From Chrysogorgia sp. JL179-B06 (taxonomy: Eukaryota; Cnidaria; Anthozoa; Scleralcyonacea; Chrysogorgiidae), in contig JAYKKM010000145.1 in the NCBI GenBank assembly GCA_035772405.1, forward strand, positions 1,337,001-1,401,000: a DNA stretch of 64,000 nucleotides, in the 5' to 3' direction. Of the stretch, positions 12,527 to 33,798 are shown piece after piece. The notes below the pieces were generated by a model. The model ran no database searches and had not been told where the DNA came from. It saw only the letters and a program-made list of their open reading frames with translations. Position numbers and translations under genes: made by a program. The first letter of the stretch is position 1; every line of letters begins with the position of its first letter.

Positions 12527-12597
<71 letters not shown>

Positions 12598-12674: not shown

Positions 12675-12733
<59 letters not shown>

Positions 12734-15295: not shown

Positions 15296-15696
15296 AGTAG
15301 TATAGCAACTAGGGCTGCGAGCTCAATCGACCTCAACCGTGAATATAAACACCAAAACGTCACCAAATTTGGCCAAGTCACGACTCGACAAATTTGGCGA
15401 TGTTTTGGTGTTTATATTCACGATTGACGTCGAATAAGCTCGCAGCCCTAGTTGCTATACTACTACAACGATCGTTAGTCAATCTAGACACCCTTCGCAC
15501 GTTTTCTACTAAATTGATGTCAAACACATGCGAGATTAGCGAAACAATACCAAATTTATACTAAATTTGACACCATTTCAGCCATATTTAAAAAAAAGAG
15601 AGTGTCGTTTCAAAATTCTCACAAATTACATTTAGGAAAAAATAGAAAGTGTCATTTCAACATTTTCGCGTGTTAAAAAATAAAATGTGGTACGAG
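15296..15696. repeat. Left terminal inverted repeat with tip palindrome
   Basis: By direct comparison it is identical to the reverse complement of 33398-33798. The outer 169 bp (15296-15464) are themselves an imperfect palindrome: arms of about 76 bp containing CTAGGGCTGCGAGCT and AATATAAACACCAAAAC, with a 17-nt centre, so each end could fold into a large hairpin. Beyond 15696 similarity drops sharply, though weaker homology continues for about 40 bp. Confidence 0.95.
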
Positions 15697-15699
15697 CGG

Positions 15700-15905
15700 T
15701 CTCACATATTAAAGAAAATAGAAAGTGTCATTTCAACATTTTCACAAATTTGTCAAATCACATTTAAAAAATAGAGAGCGCCGTCTTAACATTTTCACAA
15801 ATTTGTCAAATCACATTTAAAAAATAGAAAGTATTATTTCAACATTTTCACAAATTTGTCAAATCACATTTAAAAAAATAGTCATTTCAACATTTTTACA
15901 AATTT
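15700..15905. repeat. Subterminal direct repeats, about 55-60 bp
   Basis: Three to four imperfect tandem copies of a unit containing ATAGAAAGTGTCATTTCAAC and ACAAATTTGTCAAATCACAT, next to the left terminal repeat. The same words occur once inside the terminal repeat, suggesting expansion from it. A role in terminal protein or replication-factor binding is possible but not shown. Confidence 0.8.
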
Positions 15906-15986
15906 ATGTATCGTAAAAGTGTCTCACGCGTGATAAAATTGCCACCTGTTATGCAAATTAGGTTATTGCCACCTGTTAATAATAGA

Positions 15987-16499
15987 TTAGTCCGTTTGTT
16001 CACTATTTTCAGTGTTTGTTGCCTCTTTTCTAAAATGGTGATCGTACACATATTTCGACGTTGTGATTCCTCCCGACAGCAAGCCTAAGAAAGGCACGTA
16101 CGGCGTCACAATCGCGACAATGCTCTCAACGTCTTTCTTTAGTAGCGGGTCTTTTTGTAGTTCGTCGTTTAGTTCGTCAGGATTTTCAATAGCGTTCAAC
16201 CCATCTAGTAAGCTGGCGAATTTGCTGATTAACAAGTCGGTGAGAAAAGCGTTTGCGATCTCCATTCTCTTCAACTCGTATTGGCGCCATATCTTATCAA
16301 TAACTTTTGCGGACGCTTTTTTAATGTACGCTTCGGACTGACTCACCACACCATCACCAGACAGTCTAATAAGTTCAGATCTCCTAACGTCAATATTGTC
16401 TTCCACAGTTGAGGTGTCATCAGTCTCCTCAACTAACTCCTCAATCGTAGGATTTTCCTCACTTTTGCGTTTTACCATCACGCTATTACTTATACCCAT
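15987..16499 (-). CDS. Conserved small Polinton protein, unknown function
   Basis: A 170-residue protein, last gene of the leftward block, 3 bp after the ATPase. It has an acidic, Lys/Glu-rich N-terminus (residues 8-40), a charged helical middle (IKKASAKVIDKIWRQYE, KRMEIANAFLTDLLISK), and a hydrophobic segment near residues 128-148 (VAIVTPYVPFLGLLSGG) that could be a membrane or hairpin helix. It ends TENSEQTD, the same octapeptide that ends the PolB reading frame at the other side of the element. The arrangement recalls small helical proteins of other cnidarian Polintons; the function is not known to me. An alternative ATG seven codons downstream is possible. Confidence 0.8.
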   Translation of the reverse strand: MGISNSVMVKRKSEENPTIEELVEETDDTSTVEDNIDVRRSELIRLSGDGVVSQSEAYIKKASAKVIDKIWRQYELKRMEIANAFLTDLLISKFASLLDGLNAIENPDELNDELQKDPLLKKDVESIVAIVTPYVPFLGLLSGGITTSKYVYDHHFRKEATNTENSEQTD

Positions 16500-16502
16500 A
16501 TT

Positions 16503-17102
16503 TTATTGCGGAATAACAACTTCATGACTGTATGGGTAACGCAGCGAGATTTCGAGTCTAGCGTACTTATTATTTTTTAATGCGGTCACAATCGCCGACG
16601 ATTTTTCTCTGCTAATGTTTCCAAGGTAATCGTCGATAACGACCTTCATATCACTCCTACTTGGGCAGTAGAAGCAAACGAGCTTACTAATATTTTCTCT
16701 GTACGGTTTTGCGATCGACGTCAGTTGTTGTGTGATGACAATAACGCTCAGCGTAAAATGTCGCGCACTAAAAGCTAAGTTGACCAATTGACTAGTCCTA
16801 TTCTTAACATCTTGAGAGCTCGCACAGTCGTCCAACACAATCAGAGTGTTAGTGCCTTTAAAAACATTTGTTACACACTTGAGAACAGCGTCAACACTAT
16901 CCTGCGCGCAGTCTATCGCTAACACGTCAGGGTCGCGCACATATTTCCAATCTTGGTACGCTTTGTTCCACTCGAAAGTAGGACAAATCAACACAATGTA
17001 GTCAAATTTACTAAAGTACTCAGATTCCAATGTTTCCAACAAATAATGCGTCTTACCACAAGCTGTCATACCAACAATTAACATATTAAACGGAGTCTCC
17101 AT
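16503..17102 (-). CDS. DNA packaging ATPase (A32/FtsK-HerA-like)
   Basis: A 199-residue P-loop ATPase expected to pump genomic DNA into the capsid. Walker A is GMTACGKT at residues 11-18, close to the N-terminus as in Polinton and poxvirus A32-like ATPases. Walker B is TLIVLDDC around residues 86-93, and a polar ITQQ sensor-like motif follows near 123-126. The length is normal for Polinton ATPases. It starts at an ATG 15 bp after the major capsid stop, in the usual Polinton order MCP-ATPase. The small gene at 15987 follows directly. Confidence 0.93.
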   Translation of the reverse strand: METPFNMLIVGMTACGKTHYLLETLESEYFSKFDYIVLICPTFEWNKAYQDWKYVRDPDVLAIDCAQDSVDAVLKCVTNVFKGTNTLIVLDDCASSQDVKNRTSQLVNLAFSARHFTLSVIVITQQLTSIAKPYRENISKLVCFYCPSRSDMKVVIDDYLGNISREKSSAIVTALKNNKYARLEISLRYPYSHEVVIPQ

Positions 17103-17117
17103 TAACTCACGTTTGAT

Positions 17118-18356
17118 TTAATACTGGATTGATTGCAGCCCATTGTTCATGAAGTTGACCAACCCATCACTTATCACAAACACCCTGCACATGACATTTG
17201 CAGTCGTCACTTTTTTAGTGATTTCAAGAAGCACGCCAGATTGTGTGTTTACAATGTTCTTGCCAGTGGCGACATTGCGATTATCTTGAACGCTCCTCAA
17301 GTCAATGACCAACGCGAAGCCATCTTTATAGAACTTCTGTATGGTCATGAACTGAGCGTGTTCTTCACCCAACCCAAACAATCGTTTCGCTTCTGCATAG
17401 AACTTCGACTTTGGGATGCCTTGTGAGTACACACTATTTGGCACGCCTTCGATTGTGACTCTAACGCTCTCAATATTTGGGTAAAGAAACTCCTCACTGT
17501 CTGCTCGCACCTTATTCGTGAATAGCAACACAATTGCCTTCATGCTTTTTCTTGGTAGATTAACATTCTCGTTCACAATGGTCGTACCTTTATCCCATTC
17601 AGTGGTTTTCATCAACGTGATGTGCTCATATGACAAACTACGACCACTTGTATAGCCCGACGCTATTTCGTCAGCGAGCTCCTGATTATCAATCGTCTCA
17701 TACTCAAGCTCGAGGTTCTCCAGAGTGTATCCGCCCACAGCGCTACCGGATTGCGCCACCATGATGTCTGTGGCCTTCGGAAGTGTGATCACATACTGCA
17801 AGTTGTTGTTCATGCTAAAAGGAGCGTACAACCCGTGGTCGTTCATGATCTTGCCGAGCTTAATCCGCTGTTTCGTTCCAATCACACCAAACATTAACGC
17901 GTCGTTAACTTTAGCGACGTTTCCACTCGTCGCACCACTGTCATCCTTAGAAACTAGCTTTCTCAAGTTCTCACCACCAACACCATAGTCAATCATTTGG
18001 TCTCGCGCAGTAACACTTTCCCAAAGGTCGCGATAGACACCAGTGTAATTTTCCCCATTGTTGTCATACACAGTCTCCCCAGCTAGTTTCACAACAAGCT
18101 TCTCAACCAACAACTTGCTAACATTATTCAAGAACCAGCTTTTGGCGTTTGCATTCTTAAAGTCGAACACTAAACCCAACGATCCAGGCACCAAACAGCT
18201 ACTAACCTTAAGCTTTGGTATGTCAACGTAAAGTTCCTCACCAGGACTAACTTTATTGGGGTTCAACGTGATTACGTGTTGCGTTCTCACCCCTTTTATG
18301 CCACCCATGGTCGCTCGTCTAAAACCAGGGCTCAACTCTGCTGACGTGACGTTCAT
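17118..18356 (-). CDS. Major capsid protein, double jelly-roll
   Basis: A 412-residue protein matching Polinton major capsid proteins (the former PY) in length and context. It is expected to form trimeric capsomers of an icosahedral shell. Features are a beta-rich sequence with few charged helices, GGIKGVRTQHVITLNP near the N-terminus, SWFLNNVSKLLVEKLVVKLAGE around residues 72-93, which corresponds to the first jelly-roll, and a C-terminal half with KAIVLLFTNKVRADSEEFLYPNI (second jelly-roll). It sits between the 479-residue membrane protein and the ATPase. Assignment rests on sequence style and synteny, not on a structural comparison. Confidence 0.88.
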   Translation of the reverse strand: MNVTSAELSPGFRRATMGGIKGVRTQHVITLNPNKVSPGEELYVDIPKLKVSSCLVPGSLGLVFDFKNANAKSWFLNNVSKLLVEKLVVKLAGETVYDNNGENYTGVYRDLWESVTARDQMIDYGVGGENLRKLVSKDDSGATSGNVAKVNDALMFGVIGTKQRIKLGKIMNDHGLYAPFSMNNNLQYVITLPKATDIMVAQSGSAVGGYTLENLELEYETIDNQELADEIASGYTSGRSLSYEHITLMKTTEWDKGTTIVNENVNLPRKSMKAIVLLFTNKVRADSEEFLYPNIESVRVTIEGVPNSVYSQGIPKSKFYAEAKRLFGLGEEHAQFMTIQKFYKDGFALVIDLRSVQDNRNVATGKNIVNTQSGVLLEITKKVTTANVMCRVFVISDGLVNFMNNGLQSIQY

Positions 18357-18378
18357 ATACTTTACATATGTTTTGTCA

Positions 18379-19818
18379 CTACCGTTTTAGCTTGTAATAA
18401 TCATAAGCGAACCACGCAAGTACCACCGCGAGTACCCATAGATTTTGAGCCAACCAAGCGAGACCCTTTACACCCAACGTCAACATATTGTAAACTAAAT
18501 TAGCCAACCCAACAGCCCATGGACCCATCTTCGTTATCGCGTTCTTAACAGCCTGTGCGAATGACCTCGTAGCCATAGCGCCCCTCATAACAGCAGACCT
18601 CCCAGCGATAATAATAGTTGTTATAATCCCAGCCACTGAAATTGCCACAGCGCTCAACCCGACTACATTTTCTTTAGCCCATTCCTTGAATCTCTGAAAC
18701 CTGTCAATGTCGATCTCTTGTTGCTCTCTAACTTCCTCTACTTGTCGCTGCTCAATAGTTCTGTCTCTGGCTTGCTTGAGTCCTGACTCTCTTTCAACCA
18801 AACCAACGTGCTCTCGCTCTTCGTCGGGCGTGAGACCAGTTTGGTTAGTTTTTTTATCAAGCTTTGCCAATCTCCCACTCGTCTCATCTATCGTCTCTTG
18901 AAAGTGGTCTACCTGCGCTTGCAACGCACCATCGTCACCTGTTCTTGACTCAGGCACCACACTATCGCTTGGATTAACCACACCACTCAGATCACGGTTC
19001 TCGTCTGGTGATAACCCAGGTATGTCGTCGTGATCCACTCTTGTCTCAATCACTGGGAGGTCGTCTGAGGTCACTTCTGTTGTGACAACTGTTGTTTCTA
19101 CATTCTCAGGGATTTGACTAACTAACTTTTTGAACTGCTCGATCGCGTTTTTACTACTCGCGTCTTTACTGTAGATCAAACCTTTTTTCCTAGGTTTTAG
19201 AATTAGTTTGGGTTTTCCATATTTACCATCTTTGTTTATCGGTTTGAAAAGAATAACCCCTGAGTCCGTAACCTGCGACCTGTTGACTATTTTCCTTGAC
19301 GCGTCGTCTTGACCGAGTGCCTTTTTGCTTAATTTACGTATTTTCTTGTTTATTAGCTTGATTCTTTTTACGTTGTTTTCTGTTAGCTTTTTGTTGGATG
19401 CTTTTAGCTCGCCCAGCCTTCTCTCAATTTCTCTCTCCTCTTCAAAAGCTATACTAAAACTCTCGTCATTGACATCACCATATGACTCCTGCTCAACAAA
19501 CTCCACTGCAGGGACTTCTGTGTTGGTTCCCCTTATCGTCACCGTCTTACCATCATCAGTATCAATAAATGACGTCTCTTTTTGCCCACCTCGCCTCACG
19601 TCTAGCTCACTCAGTATCTTTTTCGCTAAGTCTTGATAGTCGTTGTAATTAACACGAACGTCTTCCGGCATGTTGTCTTCAGTGTACTTACCGTACATGC
19701 CTTCAATAACGTCTTCAACATCGACGAGCGTCTTTTCTAATTGCTCATTACTCATGTCTTCGTACTTATTGAGGGTTTCCATCTCGATCTCGTCAAAAAC
19801 TTCCCCACCTTCAGCCAT
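18379..19818 (-). CDS. Membrane protein, long paralogue of a tandem pair
   Basis: A 479-residue protein of unknown function. The first 380 residues are hydrophilic, acidic and probably coiled-coil (REIERRLGELKASNKKLTE; VEEVREQQEIDIDRFQRF). The last 95 are hydrophobic, with likely membrane segments at about 385-406 and 450-472 separated by RSFAQAVKNA and KMGPWAVGLANLVY. The last 130 residues and the N-terminal KYEDMSNEQLEKTL are closely matched by the adjacent 335-residue protein, so the two arose by tandem duplication; the extra 140 residues here include a Lys-rich stretch. It is probably a virion or membrane-remodelling protein, because it lies between the integrase and the capsid gene. Confidence 0.8.
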   Translation of the reverse strand: MAEGGEVFDEIEMETLNKYEDMSNEQLEKTLVDVEDVIEGMYGKYTEDNMPEDVRVNYNDYQDLAKKILSELDVRRGGQKETSFIDTDDGKTVTIRGTNTEVPAVEFVEQESYGDVNDESFSIAFEEEREIERRLGELKASNKKLTENNVKRIKLINKKIRKLSKKALGQDDASRKIVNRSQVTDSGVILFKPINKDGKYGKPKLILKPRKKGLIYSKDASSKNAIEQFKKLVSQIPENVETTVVTTEVTSDDLPVIETRVDHDDIPGLSPDENRDLSGVVNPSDSVVPESRTGDDGALQAQVDHFQETIDETSGRLAKLDKKTNQTGLTPDEEREHVGLVERESGLKQARDRTIEQRQVEEVREQQEIDIDRFQRFKEWAKENVVGLSAVAISVAGIITTIIIAGRSAVMRGAMATRSFAQAVKNAITKMGPWAVGLANLVYNMLTLGVKGLAWLAQNLWVLAVVLAWFAYDYYKLKR

Positions 19819-19876
19819 ATTACATTAGCTCACATTTTGAATATCGCTCTCTGACTCCCACGAATCACATTTGCTT
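19819..19876 (-). pseudogene. Relic of integrase 3' end between the paralogues
   Basis: This 58-bp spacer, read on the minus strand, encodes a decayed copy of the integrase C-terminus: DSW..ESDIQNV followed by a stop, matching NSWIPESDIQNV-stop of the integrase at 20891. It shows that the duplicated unit was [integrase tail + membrane protein gene]. Confidence 0.8.
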
Positions 19877-20884
19877 TTAGTTTAGATAATTGTACGCAAG
19901 CCACGCGAATGTCACCGCAAACACCCACAGATTTTGAGCTAGCCAAGCGAGACCCTTTGCACCTGTCACCAGCGCGTCATAAACTAAGTTAGCCAACCCA
20001 ACAGCCCATGGACCCATCTTCATTATCGCGTTCTTAACAGCCTGTGCGAATGACCTCGTAGTCATAGCGCCTTTCATAACGTTAGACCTCCCAGCGATAA
20101 TAACAGTCGTCATAATCGCAGCTACTGAGATCGCTAAAGCACTCATCCCAACCATATTTTCTCTAGCCCATTTCTTGAACTTCTGCAATCTGTTAATGTC
20201 GACTTCCTGCTGCTCTCTAACCTCTTCTATTTCCCGCTGCTCAATAAGCATGTCTCTAGCTTTTTTAAGTCCAATCACTCTTTCAGCTAGATTGATGAAC
20301 TCTTTATCCTCCACAGCCGTGAGGTCTTTTACTGCAAGCTCCGCTATTCTTTTGTTCACTTCACTTATCAAGTTTTGAAAACGGTCCGCTCGTATTTGCA
20401 ATGTACCAGTGTCGCCTATTCTAGACTCACGCAGCACGTTCTTGCTTGGGTTGAGTAGCGCGCTCAACTCGTGGTTCTCGATTGGTGTTAGTTCAGGTAT
20501 GTTGACGTACTCTACGTGTGTGGTGTCTAACAATGGCGCACTCCTCACAATGTCTTCACGATCTCTCACATTGTCAATAGTCTGCGTTGCGAGATCACTA
20601 AAAACCCTCTCCACATGTTGATACACTCCTCCACCACTCCGCGTTACGAGATCGCTAGTAGTCTCCCCCATGTGTTGACGAAGTCTTATGTCGTGTTCGC
20701 GCTTCAGTCCACTCTCCACTCTAGTTAGTCTAGTTTCCTCATCGGCTGTGACGCCTAGATCGCCCCGAGCTAGCTCAAGATCTTGAGTGGCTCTTTCGAG
20801 ACTGCGATCTAGTTCATCATTACTCATATCTTTGTATTCATCAAAGCCCTCCGTCTCGAAGTCGTCGAAGCCACTCTTAGCCAT
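19877..20884 (-). CDS. Membrane protein, short paralogue of a tandem pair
   Basis: A 335-residue relative of the gene at 18379. Shared features are an N-terminal EYKDMSNDELDRSL, coiled-coil EVREQQEVDINRLQKF, a first hydrophobic segment (VGMSALAISVAAIMTTVII), RSFAQAVKNAIMKMGPW and a second hydrophobic segment at the C-terminus. Being adjacent to the integrase, as the duplication relic implies, it probably keeps the ancestral position. Start at ATG 20884, 6 bp after the integrase stop. Function unknown; a structural or membrane-active virion role is an inference. Confidence 0.8.
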   Translation of the reverse strand: MAKSGFDDFETEGFDEYKDMSNDELDRSLERATQDLELARGDLGVTADEETRLTRVESGLKREHDIRLRQHMGETTSDLVTRSGGGVYQHVERVFSDLATQTIDNVRDREDIVRSAPLLDTTHVEYVNIPELTPIENHELSALLNPSKNVLRESRIGDTGTLQIRADRFQNLISEVNKRIAELAVKDLTAVEDKEFINLAERVIGLKKARDMLIEQREIEEVREQQEVDINRLQKFKKWARENMVGMSALAISVAAIMTTVIIAGRSNVMKGAMTTRSFAQAVKNAIMKMGPWAVGLANLVYDALVTGAKGLAWLAQNLWVFAVTFAWLAYNYLN

Positions 20885-20890
20885 ATTACA

Positions 20891-21994
20891 CTAACCTACA
20901 TTTTGAATGTCGCTTTCTGGTATCCATGAGTTATGTTTGCTCTCATAACCCAACCATTTGACCAACGCCATCTTCTTCCCTCCGACTCTCTTTCTTTTCA
21001 ACACCTTTTCAACTCTGTACACATCGTCACCAGGTTTCTTATTGACTAGCGATAATTCCTGTTCATAAAATTTACCAATAATCTGTTCACCGCTTATATC
21101 CTCAATTTCGTACACATTCGGATCGTCACGAATAACCTTCACCACTTTAAACAGCTCCTCAGTGAAGTTGGCTTCGTAGCCCTTTGTGAACACACTCTTG
21201 TATTTACTAATTCTCACCGATTCACCAACTCTAAACTTTGGCAATGGGTTGTCTGCAAATTGATGACCAAACAAAGTGGTCCACACTTCGCGTTCATTTG
21301 ACTTATTGACATCCTTCGGTTTCATCATAACGCTTCGGTTCACATTGCTATTGTAATTGCTTACAAACTGGTCAAGAACGTTAATCCATTTGTACGTTCC
21401 ACGGGTATAAAAGTACTTCCACATAATGCTCTTCAAGCTTCTATTAAAACGCTCAACAACAGCGGCCTTTTTATCGCTCTTAGTGCTGAAATATTCAACA
21501 CCATGCTCTTTCAACAAACTTTTCACACCAACGTTGTAGAACTCGAGCCCATCGTCAAATTGCGCTAACTTAGGTGTGGTTCCAAACCGATCTTTAAAGT
21601 CATTCAACAATTTTCCAACAGCCTTAGTCATGTTCTTAGTGTCTTTTCTATAAACTGCAATGCCAAAAGCGTATCTACTCAATATTTCAATACCTGTCAA
21701 TATCCAATAATATCCACCATTCTGTTTTGAATACTTACTCATGTCCACTAAGTCCATTTGGAGCTCTTCACCAAGAAATCCAACAAAAGTCGCACGGAAC
21801 TTGTGCCTTCTCACAATAGGTTTGTACCTAGTGTAGGTGTCCTGCGCTGTCAACCATTCTTTCACTGTTTTTCTAGTCACTTTCAATCCGTCTCCCAATG
21901 CACTTTGATACAACCTCTCTACACCACTGTACCCTGTCTTAGGGTTGTAATAGATGTCTCTCAACCCCTGCTCTGTTTCCACACCAAGCTCCAT
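20891..21994 (-). CDS. Retroviral-type integrase with chromodomain
   Basis: A 367-residue integrase that should insert the linear element and create the 6-bp target duplication. The rve catalytic triad is visible as D81 (QMDLVDMSKYS), D147 (QFDDGLEF) and E181 (AAVVERFNRSLK), with the D,D-about-35-E spacing. An N-terminal helical region (residues 1-60) precedes it. A C-terminal chromodomain spans about residues 315-363 (YRVEKVLKRKR, ALVKWLGYESKHNSWIPES), a known Polinton trait that may tether integration to modified histones. The open frame extends upstream to a GTG, but ATG at 21994 is the likely start, 5 bp after the penton-like gene's stop. Confidence 0.95.
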   Translation of the reverse strand: MELGVETEQGLRDIYYNPKTGYSGVERLYQSALGDGLKVTRKTVKEWLTAQDTYTRYKPIVRRHKFRATFVGFLGEELQMDLVDMSKYSKQNGGYYWILTGIEILSRYAFGIAVYRKDTKNMTKAVGKLLNDFKDRFGTTPKLAQFDDGLEFYNVGVKSLLKEHGVEYFSTKSDKKAAVVERFNRSLKSIMWKYFYTRGTYKWINVLDQFVSNYNSNVNRSVMMKPKDVNKSNEREVWTTLFGHQFADNPLPKFRVGESVRISKYKSVFTKGYEANFTEELFKVVKVIRDDPNVYEIEDISGEQIIGKFYEQELSLVNKKPGDDVYRVEKVLKRKRVGGKKMALVKWLGYESKHNSWIPESDIQNVG

Positions 21995-21999
21995 ATAAT

Positions 22000-22698
22000 T
22001 CACACAATATACAGTTCCAATAGCACCGCACCAATTTTAGTATCGCCGTTATTTGGTTTGACGCGAAATGTCATACTTGAGTAAACACCTTTTTTAATAC
22101 CCACCTTGGACTCAATGTCCACATGGCGTTGCACTGACCCACTCAAAGACTGTTCAGTGGGTATTGGCAACGTCGCGATCACACTGCTTCGCTTCCCATC
22201 AATACCCACATTGCTCTCGGTTTCAACAATATCACATAAGATTTCTATGTACTTCAGACCTCTAAGCATGTCGACCTCGTTTGGGCTGATGTGCCACTTC
22301 GAGTCACCCTTAATCACCCTGTGCAACGCGAAACCAAGTAGAGGCCCAATGAGTTTAAGTCTAAGTGGAGTGCTAGCCTTAATCCTACATCTACTTGTGA
22401 GCGGCAATCTCTCTATCTCAATGTCCTCCCCACCATTTTTTTTATTCACTTCTTTTATTAATTTGACCAGTGCGTCGAAGTTAGCGTACCCCCCACTCGT
22501 TATCGTGCTTTTAAGATCACTCGAAGGGTGACTTAGCGCGTGGATAAGTACGGCGATATTATTATGTATGTTATAGTAGTCCCAAAACACAGTGGCTGTC
22601 TTGACCATAATGCATGGGTTATCGTGCGTGACCATTATTGCGTTGTCAAAGGACACAACTTTTTCTGCGCCTTCAATGAATACCGTCAACTTTCGCAT
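22000..22698 (-). CDS. Penton-like minor capsid protein (single jelly-roll)
   Basis: A 232-residue protein that I assign to the Polinton minor capsid family (former PX), expected at the five-fold vertices. Evidence is the C-terminal pattern KYIEILCDIVETESNVG ... SSVIATLPIP ... GVYSSMTFRVKP ... AVLLELYIV, with the beta-strand spacing seen in such proteins, and its place just upstream of the integrase. The frame is open further upstream, but that part would overlap the divergent gene at 22723; ATG 22698 (MRKLTVFIEG) is therefore preferred and leaves a 24-bp divergent promoter region. Confidence 0.75.
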   Translation of the reverse strand: MRKLTVFIEGAEKVVSFDNAIMVTHDNPCIMVKTATVFWDYYNIHNNIAVLIHALSHPSSDLKSTITSGGYANFDALVKLIKEVNKKNGGEDIEIERLPLTSRCRIKASTPLRLKLIGPLLGFALHRVIKGDSKWHISPNEVDMLRGLKYIEILCDIVETESNVGIDGKRSSVIATLPIPTEQSLSGSVQRHVDIESKVGIKKGVYSSMTFRVKPNNGDTKIGAVLLELYIV

Positions 22699-22722
22699 TA
22701 TGTATAACATACAGTATATTAT
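22699..22722. promoter_or_regulatory. Compact divergent promoter
   Basis: Only 24 bp separate the two start codons. They contain GTATAAC (22702-22708) and TATATTATA, TATA-like words usable in both directions. Confidence 0.5.
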
Positions 22723-24213: not shown

Positions 24214-24215
24214 TA

Positions 24216-25373: not shown

Positions 25374-25379
25374 GTTAAA

Positions 25380-25529: not shown

Positions 25530-25550
25530 GTAGGAGACTATAATATAGTG
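25530..25550 (+). promoter_or_regulatory. TATA-like element before BRO gene
   Basis: ACTATAATATAG lies at 25537-25548, immediately before ATG 25551. Confidence 0.4.
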
Positions 25551-26554: not shown

Positions 26555-27124
26555 CTAATTTTGTGTGGAAGGATGATGACGTCTGCACACTGCGCGATAT
26601 TGCTCAGCACCACCAACGAATGATGGCCCTGGGTTGTATCTCCAATTGAATGGCGCTTCGACAGTCGTTCCGTAAGTGTCACGACAAACGGCGCAATACG
26701 CTTTTAGAAATGTGATGTCGTCTGCTACTGGGAAGAGCGTGTCGAGTTCACCAAGTCTTTTTAAATGCTCTGTTGTTATGAGACCACAAATAATGACGTG
26801 AATGCCAGCTTTAATGTATTCACGGGTAACTGACAGATCAGAGTACCAATGGCCCTCATCAATGCCAATGACGTCATAATCGGCTATCTCGGAAGAACTC
26901 GGAAGGTTGGTGATTAACTTCGCAGGTAAACTGTCTGATCCGACAACAATGGTCTGACGATGTGTGGAGAACACGTGGTCAGTTCGCCTGGTGTCACCTG
27001 CGTTGTTCATGTAGAGGACTTTTAGCCCTGACTTACTTAACGCGACTAACCTGCGGAGAGTCTCTGTCGTTTTCCCTGCGAACATGGGACCAATCACGAT
27101 TTCTAGTTTACCGATTTTCTTCAT
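26555..27124 (-). CDS. tk: Thymidine kinase, type II
   Basis: A 189-residue enzyme that phosphorylates thymidine with ATP, raising dTTP for DNA synthesis. Walker A is GPMFAGKT at residues 12-19, in the family form GPMFSGKT. The Walker B/catalytic segment is GIDEGHWYSD around 87-96. A C-terminal zinc site is formed by CAVC and CRRH. Length is typical for cellular and viral TK1-like enzymes. It is not part of the Polinton core set, so it was probably acquired from a host or another virus. Start at ATG 27124, overlapping the end of the upstream gene by 17 bp, which suggests co-expression. Confidence 0.93.
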   Translation of the reverse strand: MKKIGKLEIVIGPMFAGKTTETLRRLVALSKSGLKVLYMNNAGDTRRTDHVFSTHRQTIVVGSDSLPAKLITNLPSSSEIADYDVIGIDEGHWYSDLSVTREYIKAGIHVIICGLITTEHLKRLGELDTLFPVADDITFLKAYCAVCRDTYGTTVEAPFNWRYNPGPSFVGGAEQYRAVCRRHHPSTQN

Positions 27125-27842
27125 GATTACTATACCTCCAGAGAAATGCTCTCTCCTGTTGCGGCAACTGTTGTTCGTTGTTAAATATCCGCTGAAGCTC
27201 TAAGTTTTTAAGATGAGTCTGCGAGCTCTCATGTCTTAAGCGATGCAGTGGGTCGTTGGTGACCACACCGCACGGGTGACAGGTGTACGCGTTTTCGTCT
27301 CTCGCAAAGTGTCTGTGAGCGGGCGAGAGTACGTGGTCCCTGATATCGTCCGCACCTAGTATCTCATTACACCCAACCTTGCAAACGTGAACGTCGCGGT
27401 TTGCGGCGAGCTCTAGCCACGCTTTGGCTTTGGTTGGGCATGGTTTCCACATAAGGGTCGCTAAGAACACTTGGAGGAAATTACCGAGTAATGTGGCTGT
27501 GGACTCACAAGGGTTGTTCAAGTAGACATCACTCGCTAACATAAGGTATTTGAATGGTGAGTAACACCACACAGGGATTATGTCAGATAACATACCAGCA
27601 AGCTCGTTGGCTCTGTCTTCTCGAAGATCGATCCAAGCGTCGAGAAGATACCTCGTATGGCGGATCTGAGAGCCAAGCCGTTTTGGTGGCCCTTCAGGGT
27701 CGGGGTCGAACATTGTGTATGTTGAGAAGTACTCGTTTAAGACGGTAGGTCCAGAGGCGCCTTGTAGGGTGGGCACACTGATAAAGGCTGTTCTCAACAT
27801 GTTGGTAATATCTTCTTCGCTGATTTCTCTGGCTTGAGTCAT
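27108..27842 (-). CDS. Zinc-finger protein, unknown
   Basis: A 244-residue protein without recognised relatives. The N-terminal 150 residues are helical. The C-terminal part holds two Cys/His clusters: CKVGC followed by HVLSPAHRH, and CHPCGVV followed by HRLRHESSQTH, spaced like C2H2 fingers, so nucleic-acid binding is likely. GTATAAC lies 3 bp before the ATG. It is the first gene of a two-gene leftward accessory unit with TK. Confidence 0.75.
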   Translation of the reverse strand: MTQAREISEEDITNMLRTAFISVPTLQGASGPTVLNEYFSTYTMFDPDPEGPPKRLGSQIRHTRYLLDAWIDLREDRANELAGMLSDIIPVWCYSPFKYLMLASDVYLNNPCESTATLLGNFLQVFLATLMWKPCPTKAKAWLELAANRDVHVCKVGCNEILGADDIRDHVLSPAHRHFARDENAYTCHPCGVVTNDPLHRLRHESSQTHLKNLELQRIFNNEQQLPQQERAFLWRYSNHEENR

Positions 27843-27973
27843 TATGTTATACTCCCAGAAAAAATCCTAATTTTTTAGTGCGTTTGGTCTGGAACTGTGA
27901 GATACCTGTGAGGTCATCTGTGAGACACCTGTGAGGTCATCTGTGAGTAAGATAACACGTGATAGTGTATTAG
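27843..27973. promoter_or_regulatory. Divergent promoter with 23-bp tandem repeat
   Basis: Between the zinc-finger gene and the 114-residue gene. It includes GTATAAC on the minus strand at 27846-27852, and 2.3 copies of a 23-bp unit (27895-27947) made of CTGTGAGAYA and CCTGTGAGGTCAT, which could bind a regulator repeatedly. Confidence 0.55.
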
Positions 27974-28318
27974 ATGGTTGAGGACCCACAGACGGCTGTT
28001 GAAGCGAAGATTACGGCTGATGTGAAAAGTGTTAAGGTGAAGGACCCAAAGCGTGTCGCTGCTGGTAAGAAGTTGGCTGAGATATCGAAAGCTGCGAAAG
28101 AAAAGAAAATGCGCGAAATGATAGTTAACGAAGAGCAGGGTGGTGAGTGGAGCTATGGATATGTTGTCGGAACACTTGGTGTAATCATCGCTGGTGCTTC
28201 GTTATGGTACACAATTAGCAGTGAAAAAGAGACACGACTAGAGCCTGTGAGTACTGCACCAGCTGTGTCAGAAAGTTGTAGAACTCGTCGTCCAACACTT
28301 GACACATTTGATTCTTGA
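27974..28318 (+). CDS. Small single-pass membrane protein
   Basis: A 114-residue protein. A Lys-rich N-terminal region (VKDPKRVAAGKKLAEISKAAKEKKMRE, residues 23-50) is followed by one hydrophobic segment at about 60-80 (YGYVVGTLGVIIAGASLWY) and a Ser/Thr/Arg-rich tail. The basic plus transmembrane layout is common in small virion proteins of cnidarian Polintons. The exact role is unknown. Its stop lies 23 bp before the next ATG. Confidence 0.7.
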   Translation: MVEDPQTAVEAKITADVKSVKVKDPKRVAAGKKLAEISKAAKEKKMREMIVNEEQGGEWSYGYVVGTLGVIIAGASLWYTISSEKETRLEPVSTAPAVSESCRTRRPTLDTFDS

Positions 28319-28341
28319 ACAAAACACACGACAATGTATAT

Positions 28342-28578
28342 ATGTCCGCGATCGATCGAAAAGAACTTATGAACGAACTGTACGATGCGCTACTTGTTAC
28401 GACTGGTGCTGTGGTAGTGAGTATGATTTCTAAAAAGGCTTTGGGAGAACCATTGGGAACACCAGAGACTGTGAAAGGCACAGTGAAACTTGCTGCGGCT
28501 GTTGGCGCGGGAACGCTGCTAGTAAAATGGATGCAATCGAAAAAGTGGATACCGACAGACCCATTCAAATCAACGTAA
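28342..28578 (+). CDS. Small membrane protein
   Basis: A 78-residue protein with two hydrophobic segments (ALLVTTGAVVVSMIS; LAAAVGAGTLLVKWM). The open frame extends nine codons upstream to a TTG, but ATG 28342 (MSAIDRKEL), preceded by GTATAT, is the likely start. Membrane topology suggests a virion membrane or entry role; not established. Confidence 0.65.
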   Translation: MSAIDRKELMNELYDALLVTTGAVVVSMISKKALGEPLGTPETVKGTVKLAAAVGAGTLLVKWMQSKKWIPTDPFKST

Positions 28579-28582
28579 GTTA

Positions 28583-29002
28583 ATGGTGAGTGTCGTGGCT
28601 GGAGGGATATTTAATGCAGTGGCTTTTGCAGGCGCTGGCTTTATGTTTTCGAAGTTTAATCACTCAGGCTATGAGACCGAGATGAAAAGGCACAACCATG
28701 CGTTGGAGCAGTTAGCCAGTGCGAAAGAAGTGTGGTATGAGAATGAGGTCGCTAAGAAAGATAAGATCCAGCGTTTGCGACAACGGCTCTCTGATGCTAA
28801 TGCTGACATCAATGACACAAACCATGCGTTGGAAGAACTTAGAAGCGTAATGACCATACAGTACAGCGGACGAGTGTTCACTGACCTCCCGAAGATTGCG
28901 GATTACTACCAACCGAGTGCGGAAATGAAGGAATACCAATTGTTGTTTGTTGGCGCGCTAGGTTTGAGTAGTGGAATAGCAGTGTGGGTGCTAGTTCGGT
29001 GA
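28583..29002 (+). CDS. Membrane / coiled-coil protein
   Basis: A 139-residue protein with an N-terminal hydrophobic segment (residues 2-21), a charged coiled coil from about 28 to 90 (EMKRHNHALEQLASAKEVW, IQRLRQRLSDANADI) and a C-terminal hydrophobic segment (YQLLFVGALGLSSGIAVWVL). The two halves of the coil repeat a HNHALE[QE]L motif (HNHALEQL, TNHALEEL). It follows the previous gene after 4 bp. It is similar in layout to small structural proteins of other Polintons. Confidence 0.7.
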   Translation: MVSVVAGGIFNAVAFAGAGFMFSKFNHSGYETEMKRHNHALEQLASAKEVWYENEVAKKDKIQRLRQRLSDANADINDTNHALEELRSVMTIQYSGRVFTDLPKIADYYQPSAEMKEYQLLFVGALGLSSGIAVWVLVR

Positions 29003-29027
29003 AAAAAATGTTGGGGTAGTATAAGCG

Positions 29028-29591
29028 ATGGACAAACTTATGAGGCAGATGAGCTACGGTTACACAATTGACGAAATCGCGAGTGAGACGCAAACTGAGT
29101 GTGGAGACACCTTCAGAATTCACCACTGCTCGGATTGTGAGGTTGTGAAAAGTGTGACTGAATGTGGTGGGTACGCGTGTCCAAAGTGTGGTGACACCGA
29201 ATGGGGTTACACTCAGAGTTACAGCGACATGAGACTCACGCGACTAAAAAGCGTTCACAAACGGTCTTGGTGGATGGGGAGGAGACTACGGAACGTTGTG
29301 AAGGGTGAGCACCTTGAGTTGATAAAAGAGGACTTCTTGAAAGTTGTCAACGCATTGTACTCATGCAATTTGGTAAAGGGTAGAAATGTCAGCAGATATG
29401 GATACTACATTATTAGGTTGTGCCATAGAAGACGAGTCGAGACACTCAAGAAGGTGTCAGACCTCAAAGACGGGAAGGTGAAAGACTTGTTCGACGATAA
29501 TTTGTTTGGGGTGGTGTACCCAAAGCTAGGGTGGTGTGAGAGTGGTGATATTTATTACAATGAGTGGGCTAAGAAAAAAAGTGTAGTGTAA
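29028..29591 (+). CDS. Zinc-ribbon protein, possible late transcription factor
   Basis: A 187-residue protein. A zinc ribbon is formed by HCSDC (Cys34, Cys37) and CPKC (Cys51, Cys54). It is followed by a basic helical domain (LKSVHKRSWWMGRRLRNVVK, DFLKVVNAL, YGYYIIRLCHRRRVE) and a hydrophobic end with LGW. The order zinc ribbon plus about 120 helical residues recalls the poxvirus/NCLDV VLTF3 family, but the match is by eye and tentative. GTATAAG lies 2 bp before the ATG. It is directly upstream of PolB. Confidence 0.7.
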   Translation: MDKLMRQMSYGYTIDEIASETQTECGDTFRIHHCSDCEVVKSVTECGGYACPKCGDTEWGYTQSYSDMRLTRLKSVHKRSWWMGRRLRNVVKGEHLELIKEDFLKVVNALYSCNLVKGRNVSRYGYYIIRLCHRRRVETLKKVSDLKDGKVKDLFDDNLFGVVYPKLGWCESGDIYYNEWAKKKSVV

Positions 29592-29601
29592 GTATAAGCC
29601 A

Positions 29602-32600
29602 ATGAGTCGGACTGTGAAAAACCCGCTGAAAAAAAGACGGGCGCATAAGACGAGTGCAGCCGTTGTCGATTCACTAACAGATGAAGCGATCAACGTTCAC
29701 GGCTTCTTTAGAGATCAAGAAACACAACCTGTAGCCCAAGACCTCACACCGCCAACACATTTGTTGGATCGAGCACTGAGAGGGTTCACAAGGTCTTATG
29801 GAGTCGAAGTAATCGACGACAGAGACATCAATCAGGTAAATGGTAGTAGAAGTGTTGTCACTAACCTTTTGAGACGTGAATTAGGTGAGGCCAACGGAAT
29901 GAAAGTGGTGGAGACAGTCAAGGTCACTTTTGAGAAGGCTTTAGAACTCAATAAGACCACATACAAAACTGCCTACTTTAACAGCGAAACGTTCGTCGTC
30001 ATTAATGACCACGACATCGAGGGTGTTGCCAATCGCGGGTCGGAGCAGATTTTGACGCGGATAGCTGGGTGGCTATCTGAGGGGTCTGGATGGACTATCG
30101 ACAAAATAGATGCACACTACGTTAACGTCGCTATTTACAGACCTTTGCATGGGAGTAGCTACATTGTGTTGCCAAAGGAGCTGCGCAACAGTATGAAGGG
30201 TCTGATAAACGTAAATAACGACGATGACAACGAGTGCTTTAGATGGTGTCACCTAGCGCACAAGTTTCCTGTTGGAAAAAACTCTGACAGAACGTCAAAA
30301 TACGTCAGACATGTCAGTAAGCTGAATTATGACGGAATCGACTTCCCAGTATCAGTCAAAGACTACAACAAGATCGAAAAGGCGAACGATATTAGCATAA
30401 ATGTTTTTGGGTACGAAAATAAGCAGCCATTCCCTGTGTACGTTTCTAAGGAGACGTATCCTGACCATATGGACCTACTGTTGATAACTAATGACGTGGG
30501 CAACAAGCATTATGTGTACATTCGCGATTTCGACAAATTCATGTACCGTCAGACAAAGTATAAGGCGAGAAAGCACTTTTGTAGATATTGCTTGCAGTGT
30601 TTTACCCGAGCGGACGTGCTTGAAAGTCATATTGAAGTGTGTTTGGTCATCAATGGGAAGCAAGCTATTAAAATGCCACAAAAAGGTGCGAAAGTGAAAT
30701 ATGAGAATTTTAGCAGACAATTAAATGTACCATTTGTGGTGTATGCAGACTTCGAGGCTATCACACAGAAGGTGCACACAGCGACACCATCAAGCGAGTG
30801 TAGCTACACAAATGCTTACCAGAGGCACGTTGACTGCGGTTATGGGTATAAATTAGTTTGTTGTTATGACAACGAGCACAGTAAGCCAGTGAAAGTGTAT
30901 CGCGGTGAAAATGCAGTCAACAAGTTCATTGGGGAGATGTTAGAAATTGTCGAATATTGTAAAGAGACATCTGAGAGTCACTTTAACAAAGAAATGATAC
31001 TGACTGATGCCGATAAGAGGAACTTTGACGAGGCTAAAAGTTGTCATATTTGCAGTGTTGAGTACACTGGCGCTGACGTTAGAGTGAGAGACCACTGTCA
31101 TGTCTCAGGTGAGTACAGAGGGTCCGCACATCGTCAGTGTAACGTGAACTTTAAGTTGACTGACAAAATTCCCGTGATCTTTCATAACTTACGTGGCTAC
31201 GATAGTCATTTCATTATGCAGGAGATTGGTAAGTTTGGCCAAGACATAAACGTGATACCAAACAACATGGAGAAGTACATGGCGTTCATGCTTGGAAAAA
31301 ACTTAGTATTTTTGGACAGCTTTCAGTTCATGAGTAGTGGTCTAGACAACTTGGTGAGGAACCTACCAAGGGACGCTTTCAAATACACGTCAGAAGTGTT
31401 TCGCGACGAGGGGTTGGCACTTATGACAAGAAAGGGGGTCTATCCCTACGATTATATGAACTCCTTTGAAAAATTCGACGAATGCGAGCTACCCTCCAAA
31501 AAAGATTTCTACAATATTCTGAATGATGAGCATATCACGGAGGAAATGCACGAGCGCGCCATCGATGTGTGGGACTACTTCGACGTTGAAAATATGGGTG
31601 GGTATCACGACCTGTATTTGAAAAGTGATGTGCTCTTGCTCGCCGACGTTTTTGAGAACTTTAGAAAGACATGCCATCGTGAGTATAAATTAGACCCGTG
31701 TCACTATTTCACATCGCCTGGATTGGCTTGGGACGCCATGTTAAAGATGACTGGAGTAGAACTTGATTTATTGTCTGACATTGACATGTTCCAGTTCGTA
31801 GAATTAGGTATGCGTGGTGGTGTGAGCTACATATGCAACAGACATGGCGTGGCGAATAATAAGTACATGGAAGGGTATGACAAAAAGCAAGAGTCGAAGT
31901 ATTTGATGTACCTTGACGCCAACAACTTGTATGGATGGGCAATGAGTCGAAGTCTACCCACGGGCGGCTTCAAGTGGTTGACTGAGAAAGAAATAGAAAA
32001 AGTTAATCTATGTGACTATCACAACAATAGTAAAAAAGGTTTACTGCTCGAGGTCGACTTGGAGTACCCAACCCATTTGCATGACCTACACAATGATTAC
32101 CCGTTGGCTCCCGAGAAGATGGAGATAACCGTTGACATGTTGTCGGAGTACTGCACGAAAATCAAAAATAAGTTTAATGTGAGTGTTGGTGGTGTGAAGA
32201 AGCTGGTGACTAATTTGATGGACAAAAAAAAGTATGTGTGTCACTACGGAAATCTGCAGTTGTACATGGATCTTGGATTAAAAATCAATAAGATTCATAG
32301 GGTCCTGCAGTTTGACCAGTCCAAGTGGCTAGGCAAGTACATCGACTTTAACACAGTCAAAAGAACCGCGGCTAAGAACGCTTTTGAGAAGGACTTCTTC
32401 AAGTTGATGAACAACAGTGTGTTCGGAAAAACGATGGAAAACTTGAGGAAGCGTGTGGACGTAAGATTAGTGACCACTGCGAAGAAATTAGAAAAGCTCG
32501 TCTCAAAGCCGACGTTTGTGTCTTGCAAAATATTTAGCGAGAACTTAGTCGCTGTCCATAAGGTTAAAGAAACGCTGACACTAAATAGGCCCGCATATGT

Positions 32601-32634
32601 GCATACTAGACTTGAGCAAAACGCTGATGTATGA
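29602..32634 (+). CDS. polB: Protein-primed family B DNA polymerase, main part
   Basis: The first 1010 codons of the Polinton replicative polymerase. An N-terminal region includes PKELRNSMKGLIN and a C2H2-like finger (CRYCLQCF, about residues 325-350). Exonuclease motifs are YADFEA (I, about 380), HNLRGYDSH (II, about 530) and YLKSDVLLLADVF (III, about 675). An endonuclease VII-like Cys/His insertion lies at about 480-515 (CHICSVEY..CHVSGEYRG..HRQC). Polymerase motif A is LDANNLYGWAM (about 770) and motif B KLMNNSVFGKTM (about 940). The frame then stops at 32634; motif C is in the next frame. A net frameshift of +1 (for example an 8-bp loss) occurs at about 32597-32602, so this copy is probably defective. 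GTATAAG precedes the ATG. Confidence 0.95.
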   Translation: MSRTVKNPLKKRRAHKTSAAVVDSLTDEAINVHGFFRDQETQPVAQDLTPPTHLLDRALRGFTRSYGVEVIDDRDINQVNGSRSVVTNLLRRELGEANGMKVVETVKVTFEKALELNKTTYKTAYFNSETFVVINDHDIEGVANRGSEQILTRIAGWLSEGSGWTIDKIDAHYVNVAIYRPLHGSSYIVLPKELRNSMKGLINVNNDDDNECFRWCHLAHKFPVGKNSDRTSKYVRHVSKLNYDGIDFPVSVKDYNKIEKANDISINVFGYENKQPFPVYVSKETYPDHMDLLLITNDVGNKHYVYIRDFDKFMYRQTKYKARKHFCRYCLQCFTRADVLESHIEVCLVINGKQAIKMPQKGAKVKYENFSRQLNVPFVVYADFEAITQKVHTATPSSECSYTNAYQRHVDCGYGYKLVCCYDNEHSKPVKVYRGENAVNKFIGEMLEIVEYCKETSESHFNKEMILTDADKRNFDEAKSCHICSVEYTGADVRVRDHCHVSGEYRGSAHRQCNVNFKLTDKIPVIFHNLRGYDSHFIMQEIGKFGQDINVIPNNMEKYMAFMLGKNLVFLDSFQFMSSGLDNLVRNLPRDAFKYTSEVFRDEGLALMTRKGVYPYDYMNSFEKFDECELPSKKDFYNILNDEHITEEMHERAIDVWDYFDVENMGGYHDLYLKSDVLLLADVFENFRKTCHREYKLDPCHYFTSPGLAWDAMLKMTGVELDLLSDIDMFQFVELGMRGGVSYICNRHGVANNKYMEGYDKKQESKYLMYLDANNLYGWAMSRSLPTGGFKWLTEKEIEKVNLCDYHNNSKKGLLLEVDLEYPTHLHDLHNDYPLAPEKMEITVDMLSEYCTKIKNKFNVSVGGVKKLVTNLMDKKKYVCHYGNLQLYMDLGLKINKIHRVLQFDQSKWLGKYIDFNTVKRTAAKNAFEKDFFKLMNNSVFGKTMENLRKRVDVRLVTTAKKLEKLVSKPTFVSCKIFSENLVAVHKVKETLTLNRPAYVHTRLEQNADV

Positions 32635-33205
32635 CTTCCACTACAACTATATCATGAAAAAGTACTCTAGCGACACCTGCAGACTACACTTCACCGACAC
32701 TGACAGTCTGCTGTACTCAATCAAAACCGATGACGTTTATTCCGACTTTATGATGGAGTGCGAAAAGTTTGACAATAGCGACTACCCTGCAGACAGCCCA
32801 TTCTTTTTTAGAGAGAATAAGAAAGTTATTGGGAAGATGAAGGACGAGTGCGCTGGAACGCCAATTGTCGAGTTCGTCGGGTTGCGCAGTAAAATGTACA
32901 GCTATTTGAAAGAGGGTGGAGGCGGCGGGAGAACCGCTAAAGGTATTAGAAAGAATATAATTAAAAAAGTGATCAGACACGAAGATTACAAAAGTGTGTT
33001 ACTTGAGCAGAAACAATTGCGACACATAATGAAGACCATTAGAAGTGTCAAACATCAGCTCGGTAGCTACGAAATTAATAAAGTATCGCTATCCTGCTTC
33101 GACGATAAACGACACCTTTTAGAAAATGGTATTGACTCCTACGCATATGGTCACAAAAACATTGTAGTGAGAGACACCACTGAAAACAGTGAGCAAACGG
33201 ACTAA
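32597..33205 (+). CDS. polB: PolB C-terminal part in shifted frame
   Basis: About 200 codons continuing PolB in the +1 frame. They carry polymerase motif C (FTDTDSLLY), KSKDEC-like DECAGTPIVEFVGLRSKMYSY and the thumb region, ending ...RDTTENSEQTD. Homology begins almost exactly where the upstream frame loses it, so the break is a small deletion (or an assembly error) rather than a separate gene. The last eight residues equal those of the protein at 15987-16499. Confidence 0.9.
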   Translation: MCILDLSKTLMYDFHYNYIMKKYSSDTCRLHFTDTDSLLYSIKTDDVYSDFMMECEKFDNSDYPADSPFFFRENKKVIGKMKDECAGTPIVEFVGLRSKMYSYLKEGGGGGRTAKGIRKNIIKKVIRHEDYKSVLLEQKQLRHIMKTIRSVKHQLGSYEINKVSLSCFDDKRHLLENGIDSYAYGHKNIVVRDTTENSEQTD

Positions 33206-33397
33206 TTCGCAAAACGACTGGCTATTTGTTAGTCAATGTTGTTAGCCAATCAAAAGAGCGCCATTTCGCTATCCACTTGGATAAAACATCACCACTAGAA
33301 TCAAAATCTAGTGGTTTTTTTTCGCGCGTGAATTGAGACAACAGCAGAACGCGTCGGTTGAAACGACACTCTCTATTCTCTAATATGTGGGAGTGAG
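33206..33397 (+). terminator. PolB 3' region with hairpin and T-run
   Basis: A 9-bp stem (ACCACTAGA/TCTAGTGGT, 33291-33315) with a 7-nt loop is followed by a run of Ts to 33322, a strong intrinsic-type terminator shape unusual for animal DNA. After it, sequence related to the left subterminal repeats leads into the right terminal repeat. Confidence 0.5.
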
Positions 33398-33798
33398 CTC
33401 GTACCACATTTTATTTTTTAACACGCGAAAATGTTGAAATGACACTTTCTATTTTTTCCTAAATGTAATTTGTGAGAATTTTGAAACGACACTCTCTTTT
33501 TTTTAAATATGGCTGAAATGGTGTCAAATTTAGTATAAATTTGGTATTGTTTCGCTAATCTCGCATGTGTTTGACATCAATTTAGTAGAAAACGTGCGAA
33601 GGGTGTCTAGATTGACTAACGATCGTTGTAGTAGTATAGCAACTAGGGCTGCGAGCTTATTCGACGTCAATCGTGAATATAAACACCAAAACATCGCCAA
33701 ATTTGTCGAGTCGTGACTTGGCCAAATTTGGTGACGTTTTGGTGTTTATATTCACGGTTGAGGTCGATTGAGCTCGCAGCCCTAGTTGCTATACTACT
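33398..33798. repeat. Right terminal inverted repeat with tip palindrome
   Basis: Mirror copy of 15296-15696. The palindrome occupies 33630-33798. The inner border lies in CTCGTACCAC at 33398. The element is followed by the TATATG duplication (33799-33804). Confidence 0.95.

What the first reader, a model, noticed from the sequence alone, without database searches (positions are those of the whole stretch)
15296..33798. Near-intact Polinton/adintovirus-like provirus in an animal genome
Identical 401-bp ends, a 6-bp target duplication and about 18 mostly open genes, including both capsid proteins, packaging ATPase, integrase and PolB. With thymidine kinase, a nuclease fusion and a fibre-like gene it looks like a virus genome with an enlarged accessory set rather than a plain transposon.
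Basis: partly seen in the sequence, partly recalled or inferred. Interest (0 to 1): 0.85.

Follow-up and report, generated by a model that had tools for sequence, protein, structure and literature searches.

The report
Recombining Polinton family, variable vertex genes
This is one young copy of a virus-like mobile element (a Polinton) that is present many times in a large, probably animal, genome; its copies look like a shuffled virus population that keeps its core genes fixed while swapping versions of the genes for its capsid corners and surface-like proteins.

Summary
15296-33798 is an 18.5-kb Polinton/Maverick (adintovirus-like) element: 401-bp inverted ends without a mismatch, AGTAGT//ACTACT termini, about 17 genes. 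The capsid model has the double jelly-roll fold; a low-confidence model of the 22.0-22.7 kb protein matches mavirus penton best. It is no lone provirus: end and capsid searches give at least 65 close loci in this 781-Mb genome. PolB is broken in this copy, in one frame in 9 of 10 others. Its TATATG duplication lies in a microsatellite, but 9 of 10 other copies have perfect 6-bp duplications.

Core genes, capsid and thymidine kinase included, are conserved (dN/dS 0.05-0.23), while penton, two membrane-anchored proteins and a zinc-finger-like gene come in divergent alleles. Nine of 15 copies have two pentons; the variable one bears the fibre's N-terminal tail, shared at DNA level. Each end is a 169-bp palindrome. 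No protease gene was recognised. Particles are not shown. New variant of a known kind.

The parts
15296..15696 (+). left terminal inverted repeat (401 bp identical to the right one)
33398..33798 (-). right terminal inverted repeat
15296..15464 (.). terminal palindrome of the left end (76-nt arms, 17-nt spacer), begins AGTAGT and ends ACTACT
   Evidence: I2; DNA fold -74.1 kcal/mol, z -21.6 against 200 shuffles
33630..33798 (.). terminal palindrome of the right end
   Evidence: I3
15592..15905 (.). subterminal tandem repeats of about 53 bp
   Evidence: D3, D5
15987..16499 (-). 170-aa protein with one weak hydrophobic stretch, function unknown
16503..17102 (-). genome-packaging ATPase (A32/FtsK type)
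   Evidence: Pfam Pox_A32 2.7e-16; dN/dS 0.05
17118..18356 (-). major capsid protein, 412 aa, double jelly-roll
18379..19818 (-). 479-aa protein, variable N-terminal part, conserved C-terminal hydrophobic anchor (tm479)
19877..20884 (-). 335-aa paralogue of the preceding gene (tm335); full-length open in 7 of 10 other copies
   Evidence: (D2, 82% over 300 nt)
20891..22003 (-). RVE-type integrase with C-terminal chromodomain
   Evidence: Pfam rve 3e-6, Chromo 1.7e-10
22003..22710 (-). penton (minor capsid) protein, single-gene form; hypervariable between copies
   Evidence: Foldseek top five all mavirus penton, best 2.6e-6, (model pLDDT 51.5)
22723..24213 (+). 496-aa protein of a large anonymous family, function unknown (p496)
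   Evidence: 151 homologues; no PDB sequence match
24216..25166 (+). fibre-like protein with conserved N-terminal tail MSLNYGYES
   Evidence: PHROG tail fibre 4.7e-4
25548..26318 (+). BRO-N / VRR-NUC nuclease / C2H2-like finger fusion
   Evidence: scored open full-length in 8 of 10 other copies
26555..27124 (-). thymidine kinase
   Evidence: Pfam TK 7.4e-28; scored open full-length in 10 of 10 other copies, (one with a stop in the aligned stretch)
27108..27842 (-). zinc-finger-like 244-aa protein, hypervariable between copies
   Evidence: zf-DBF E 0.018 (weak)
27974..29002 (+). three small proteins (114, 87, 139 aa), two with hydrophobic stretches
29028..29591 (+). 187-aa protein with a cysteine-rich stretch, function unknown
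29602..33205 (+). PolB region in two ORFs (29602-32634 and 32597-33205): exonuclease motifs and motifs A and B in the first, motif C in the second; Endonuclease VII-like insert; upstream a C...H pair as in polinton vOTU domains. Frame broken in this copy near 32.6 kb

Best explanation
A recently inserted member of a large Polinton/adintovirus-like family that behaves like a recombining DNA virus population stored in one host genome. Inferred cycle: the genome is copied from its ends by the protein-primed PolB (the AGTAGT repeat fits a slide-back start), packaged by the ATPase into an icosahedral shell of double jelly-roll capsid protein with single jelly-roll pentons at the corners, and integrated by the RVE-chromodomain integrase with a 6-bp duplication. 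When several genomes replicate in one nucleus they recombine, so each new copy is a mosaic. The core is held by purifying selection; the corner and surface-like genes (penton, two anchored tm proteins) and a zinc-finger-like gene are kept as divergent alleles that are exchanged as cassettes. In two-penton copies the variable penton carries the tail that also begins the fibre, which suggests that both dock at one site. Shown: anatomy, copies, 6-bp duplications, selection, mosaicism, allele classes, shared tail. Inferred: virion formation, co-replication as the place of recombination, receptor- or competition-driven allele diversity, docking role of the tail.
For: Polinton anatomy; end motif and two-module plan as in vertebrate Mavericks (PMC8097293). 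Copies: 26 loci by TIR and 40 by capsid gene, one shared. Youth: no TIR mismatch over 401 bp in 8 of 11 copies although the copies differ from each other by 5.7-7.7%. Selection: dN/dS ATPase 0.05, MCP 0.05, INT 0.08, PolB 0.08, BRO 0.11, TK 0.12. Mosaicism: correlation of pairwise divergence between genes, median r 0.001, 2 of 45 gene pairs at p<0.05, about what chance gives (500 permutations); incompatible sites clustered in 3 of 4 genes tested (p 0.002, 0.001, 0.001; INT 0.18); tile correlation 0.40 (median) inside a tile, 0.11 at 600 bp, near zero beyond with scatter from -0.30 to 0.21; 40 star-tree simulations give on average 33 informative sites and 36% incompatibility per capsid-sized gene against 126 and 61% observed. 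Cassettes. Shared tail, 24-26 of 27 nt in eight copies.
Confidence: 0.68

Rival explanations
1. A plain self-synthesising transposon: capsids, if made, only move DNA between nuclei of the same host line; mosaicism comes from ectopic gene conversion between chromosomal copies and the variable genes are simply under weaker constraint.
For: At least 65 close loci in one genome; variable genes have dN/dS below 1.
Against: TIR pairs inside copies are identical in 8 of 11, which leaves little time after insertion for fine mosaics to build up by conversion, unless the ends are themselves converted; over all penton forms the synonymous divergence (0.81 in the N-terminal half, 0.54 in the rest) exceeds that of core genes (0.21-0.34), which weaker constraint alone does not give, though the N-terminal alignment is uncertain and within one form the values are 0.19-0.33; capsid and ATPase are the most constrained genes.
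Confidence: 0.22
2. A virophage-like or antiviral role: the element uses, or defends against, a large DNA virus of the same host, from which TK and BRO genes and perhaps the capsid module came.
Against: No helper virus known here; it has its own PolB-like gene; fold ranking does not show ancestry.
Confidence: 0.06
3. Assembly artefact: mosaics and identical ends come from collapsed or mis-joined repeat copies.
For: High copy number and near-identical ends are hard to assemble; no reads could be examined.
Against: Different flanks with matching 6-bp duplications at 9 of 10 copies; contigs up to 18 Mb; relatedness is lost within about 1 kb, while mis-joins would swap long blocks.
Confidence: 0.04

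Closest known systems
Vertebrate Mavericks/Polintons (PMC8097293; passages and section 7 seen)
   Same: (AGT)2//(ACT)2 ends, 6-bp duplications, TIR length (mean 402 bp there), two gene modules on opposite strands, PolB/integrase/ATPase/both capsid genes, purifying selection on core genes
   Different: ATPase sits beside the capsid gene instead of beside PolB; penton lies upstream of integrase; modules run outward from the centre (reported there only for the cane toad); no recognised protease; TK, BRO-VRR and fibre-like genes; penton alleles and duplication; terminal palindromes
Adintoviruses incl. Stylophora coral adintovirus StCAV (PMC11071296, section 16 and passages; PMC11071308, passages)
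   Same: integrase with C-terminal chromodomain; C...H pair upstream of the PolB exonuclease as in vOTU domains; duplicate pentons are reported for a few adintoviruses
   Different: many integrated copies compared within one genome; penton dimorphism and shared fibre tail; hexon-type membership could not be tested
Mavirus and other virophages (PDB 6g41/6g42 penton, 6g45 capsid)
   Same: penton and capsid folds; RVE integrase (of mavirus, recalled)
   Different: no helper virus known; PolB with exonuclease motifs; Maverick-type ends
Meldvirus chimeras with large-virus-like capsids (PMC11071296, Figure 7 legend passage)
   Same: adintovirus-like PolB and integrase beside a compact capsid protein whose model resembles those of large DNA viruses
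   Different: relation not tested by sequence; one 420-aa 'MELD virus sp.' protein is among the fold matches (E 6.4e-12)

Membership tests
Polinton/Maverick | terminal inverted repeats with the (AGT)2//(ACT)2 motif | tested here: met
   motif from PMC8097293
Polinton/Maverick | 6-bp target-site duplication | tested here: met
   9 of 10 other copies perfect; in the window copy not diagnostic because of the microsatellite
Polinton/Maverick | RVE-family integrase | tested here: met
   rve 3e-6 (27.8 bits, Pfam cut-off 32.6) and PHROG transposase 4.3e-10
Polinton/Maverick | A32/FtsK-like packaging ATPase | tested here: met
   2.7e-16
Polinton/Maverick | double jelly-roll major capsid protein | tested here: met
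Polinton/Maverick | single jelly-roll penton | tested here: met
[quoted passage not shown]
   six motifs in order (motifs recalled) but no profile match even for unbroken versions
Polinton/Maverick | Ulp1/adenovirus-like cysteine protease | tested here: inconclusive
   no Pfam protease match among the 19 ORFs scanned at E up to 1; no fold tested; in PMC4028283 it was identifiable in 74% of Polintons (passages)
Adintovirus | rve integrase with C-terminal chromodomain | tested here: met
   1.7e-10
Adintovirus | PolB with N-terminal OTU-like domain | tested here: inconclusive
   NxCFRWC...KHYVYI pair in one 98-residue stretch in 11 of 11 copies; no fold comparison made
Adintovirus | hexon recognisable by BLASTp against adintovirus references | not tested
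   no reference hexon sequences at hand; only a fold match to an Adintovirus sp. capsid protein, E 1e-14

The most novel reading that the evidence does not exclude
A Polinton family that lives as a serotype-like virus population inside one animal genome: a near-panmictic core with balanced alleles of penton and anchored surface-like proteins, a switch between one-penton and two-penton capsids, and a fibre tail moved onto a penton so that alternative corner proteins can occupy the same dock.
Probability: 0.3. Interest if true: 0.82.

Novelty: new variant of a known kind. Interest (0 to 1): 0.62.

Why it matters
Whether Polintons still make infectious particles in animals is open. Diversity concentrated in corner and surface-like genes, with a constrained capsid and free recombination of the core, is what an active, competing virus population would leave behind, and it gives concrete, testable predictions (particles with alternative corners, allele sharing between hosts). 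One genome holding many young, mosaic copies is also a ready population-genetic sample of such an element.

Tried and rejected
Hairpin-telomere replication (parvovirus/poxvirus style): the 169-bp terminal palindrome suggested it, but 22 of 22 ends of 11 copies show it in one orientation, whereas hairpin transfer should give both. Two further rows there (L006, L007) read as the other orientation only because those loci lie unturned; I dropped them; two more (L005, L008) agree with the 22. Fossil copy: rejected by open frames and low dN/dS. Star phylogeny without recombination: rejected by a simulation with parameters of my choosing. Relatives in viral contigs: none confirmed for PolB, capsid (single and alignment) or p496; none in phage records with PolB. 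Host identity: the GFP family gave nothing, but the 14 control genomes were silent too, so this says nothing; the COX1 request did not complete. Copy number by pattern: not completed. The fibre and p496 had no meaningful PDB sequence match. The penton profile against PDB sequences gave only chance-like kinase rows, the capsid profile only two lysozyme rows at E 1.5. Of 15 copies, the single-penton ones are grouped A/B by eye. In one search rows near piece ends (fibre, p496) look incomplete only because the pieces were cut there; they are not counted as losses; the low tiles at 24296-24546 have the same cause. The printout says 2000 permutations; the script ran 500 (1000 for the site test). Print searches (all 10 used): adintovirus; Polinton with thymidine kinase; with minor capsid/fibre/BRO; with cnidaria; with coral; with penton/recombination/receptor; with Stylophora; Maverick with mosaic/recombination; Polinton with hairpin/palindrome; adintovirus with penton/recombination. 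No listed title or start of abstract reports penton allele cassettes or terminal palindromes in Polintons; only open-licence papers are held, lists are capped, and I saw only parts of four papers.
Full report
What is there. The stretch 15296-33798 is bounded by inverted repeats of 401 bp without a mismatch; beyond base 402 the two sides differ near a block of tandem repeats of about 53 bp. The outermost bases are AGTAGT and ACTACT, the commonest end motif of vertebrate Mavericks (PMC8097293, section 7). TATATG stands on both sides, but within a TATATG/TA microsatellite, so the target duplication of this copy is not diagnostic.

Genes. On the minus strand of the left half, reading outward: penton, integrase, two paralogous membrane-anchored proteins, major capsid protein, packaging ATPase and a 170-aa protein. 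In the right half: p496, fibre-like protein, BRO-N/VRR-NUC/finger fusion, then thymidine kinase and a zinc-finger-like protein on the minus strand, then small proteins, a 187-aa protein and PolB. In vertebrate Mavericks the ATPase sits with PolB and a protease with the capsid gene; here the ATPase is next to the capsid gene and none of 19 ORFs scanned matches a protease family. PolB is in two ORFs in this copy: exonuclease motifs and motifs A and B in the first, motif C in the second (motifs recalled). In 9 of 10 other copies the gene is one frame of 1196-1205 aa; in the tenth it is broken elsewhere. No profile library recognised it as a polymerase, even unbroken (two versions by Pfam; one by PDB sequences and PHROGs); a C...H pair like that of polinton vOTU domains (PMC11071308, passages) is present in 11 of 11 copies.

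Copies in the same genome. The window lies in a 781-Mb, 522-contig genome. The end sequence gave 40 scored full-length matches of at least 95%, which I read as 14 pairs and 12 single ends, 26 loci. The capsid gene gave 40 scored matches, all full length at 95% or more; only the window is in both lists, so at least 65 loci exist, and both lists are capped at 40 of more than 2,500 first-look candidates. I fetched ten other paired copies as separate halves. Nine of ten have a perfect 6-bp duplication, each of another sequence. In 8 of 11 copies, window included, the two ends do not differ in 401 bp; two others differ by an indel and at most one substitution, and one (C213) at 15 aligned sites.

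Selection. Mean pairwise dN/dS across copies with open frames (6 to 11 sequences per gene): ATPase 0.05, capsid 0.05, t170 0.07, integrase 0.08, PolB 0.08, s139 0.10, BRO fusion 0.11, thymidine kinase 0.12, p496 0.14, s114 0.15, p187 0.23; tm335 0.41, tm479 0.41, zinc-finger-like 0.53. Of the ten other copies, frames were scored open and full length in 10 for ATPase, integrase and TK, 9 for capsid and PolB, 8 for BRO; TK in one of these carries a stop in the aligned stretch by tblastn. The penton, s87 and fibre rows are not usable: the window's listed start codons of the first two are not shared, and the fibre is cut by my piece boundaries.

Mosaics. All 55 pairs of eleven copies differ by 5.7-7.7% over the 20 of 28 tiles in which all copies align; the eight dropped tiles include the variable genes and the piece boundaries. 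Pairwise divergence in one gene does not predict that in another (45 gene pairs, median r 0.001, two with p below 0.05, about what chance gives; 500 permutations). Interleaved halves of one 600-bp tile correlate at 0.40 (median; range 0.03 to 0.98), neighbouring tiles at 0.11, farther tiles near zero with scatter from -0.30 to 0.21. Site incompatibility is lower at short range than expected in three of four genes (capsid p 0.002, p496 and PolB 0.001; integrase not, 0.18). In 40 star-tree simulations without recombination there were 33 informative sites and 36% incompatible pairs on average, and none clustered at p below 0.01, against 126 and 61% in the capsid gene. The copies are therefore mosaics from a diverse pool.

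Cassettes. Against a background of about 94%, identity falls sharply in the penton, in tm479/tm335 and, in some copies, in the zinc-finger-like gene, the end of p496 and the end of PolB. The tm proteins vary in their N-terminal parts and keep a nearly constant C-terminal anchor. Among 15 copies whose penton region I saw (11 plus four more; three of these four only in part), six have one penton gene (window, C122, C362; C209, C475b, C292) and nine have two. In the two-gene form one penton is constrained (dN/dS 0.09, n=6) and the other is variable (0.50, n=7); the single-gene form is variable too (0.54, n=6). Over all 13 variable pentons the synonymous divergence averages 0.81 in the N-terminal and 0.54 in the C-terminal half, against 0.21-0.34 in core genes, though within one form it is 0.19 or 0.33 and the N-terminal alignment is uncertain; so the forms may be older than the core or have come from outside. 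The variable penton of the two-gene form begins MSLNYG(Y/F)DS in the eight such copies whose start I read; the fibre begins MSLNYGYES, its first 45 residues being identical in 10 of 11 copies, the eleventh cut. The 27 coding bases agree with the window fibre at 24-26 positions while the 40 bases upstream do not (12-15 of 40). So the tail appears to have been copied between two unrelated genes; a docking peptide is the simplest reading, by analogy with adenovirus fibre tails that bind the penton base (recalled), but a shared expression signal over the start codon is not excluded. The single penton has the leader region of one and the body of the other penton gene, as if one form arose from the other by recombination (inferred).

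Ends. The outer 169 bp fold back on themselves almost completely. All 22 ends of eleven copies have the palindrome in the same orientation, which speaks against hairpin-transfer replication and fits protein-primed replication with, perhaps, a structural or packaging role of the palindrome (inferred).

How it fits. I file it as a Polinton/Maverick with adintovirus traits. What I did not find in the ten print searches is a within-genome population of such elements with a shuffled core and allele cassettes at the capsid corners. Duplicate pentons in a few adintoviruses (PMC11071296) and a coral adintovirus (PMC11071308) are in print. Whether particles form is untested.

Noticed in passing
window 15296-15464 and 33630-33798: Each end of the element is a 169-bp near-perfect palindrome that itself begins AGTAGT and ends ACTACT, so it looks like a miniature element; whether solo 169-bp units exist in the genome was not tested.
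   Followed up: partly
window 33937-34596: Minisatellite with a 15-bp period just outside the right end of the element.
   Followed up: no
window 11859-13392: Exon of a host flavin amine oxidoreductase-type gene (Pfam Amino_oxidase 1e-10 at 11859-12911; looks like protoporphyrinogen oxidase by eye, as does the ORF at 13072-13392, which has no Pfam match), about 2 kb left of the insertion.
   Followed up: no
window 53631-55262: Open 543-aa protein with a MULE transposase domain (6e-7), a second, unrelated mobile element.
   Followed up: no
window 9773-9845 (-) and 11010-11080 (+): Two Rfam tRNA matches (53 and 32.9 bits) in the left flank.
   Followed up: no
L012:8380-8577 and L024:8520-8804: In two copies (C77, C362) the 3' part of the 170-aa gene is repeated at the PolB end, i.e. 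the inverted repeat reaches into the gene; its boundary shifts between copies. In the window the two outermost ORFs share their last residues.
   Followed up: partly
window 22723-24213: p496 belongs to a large, anonymous family (151 homologues, some on contigs of over 1 Mb) with a few near-invariant residues and no solved relative by sequence; a good target for structure work.
   Followed up: partly
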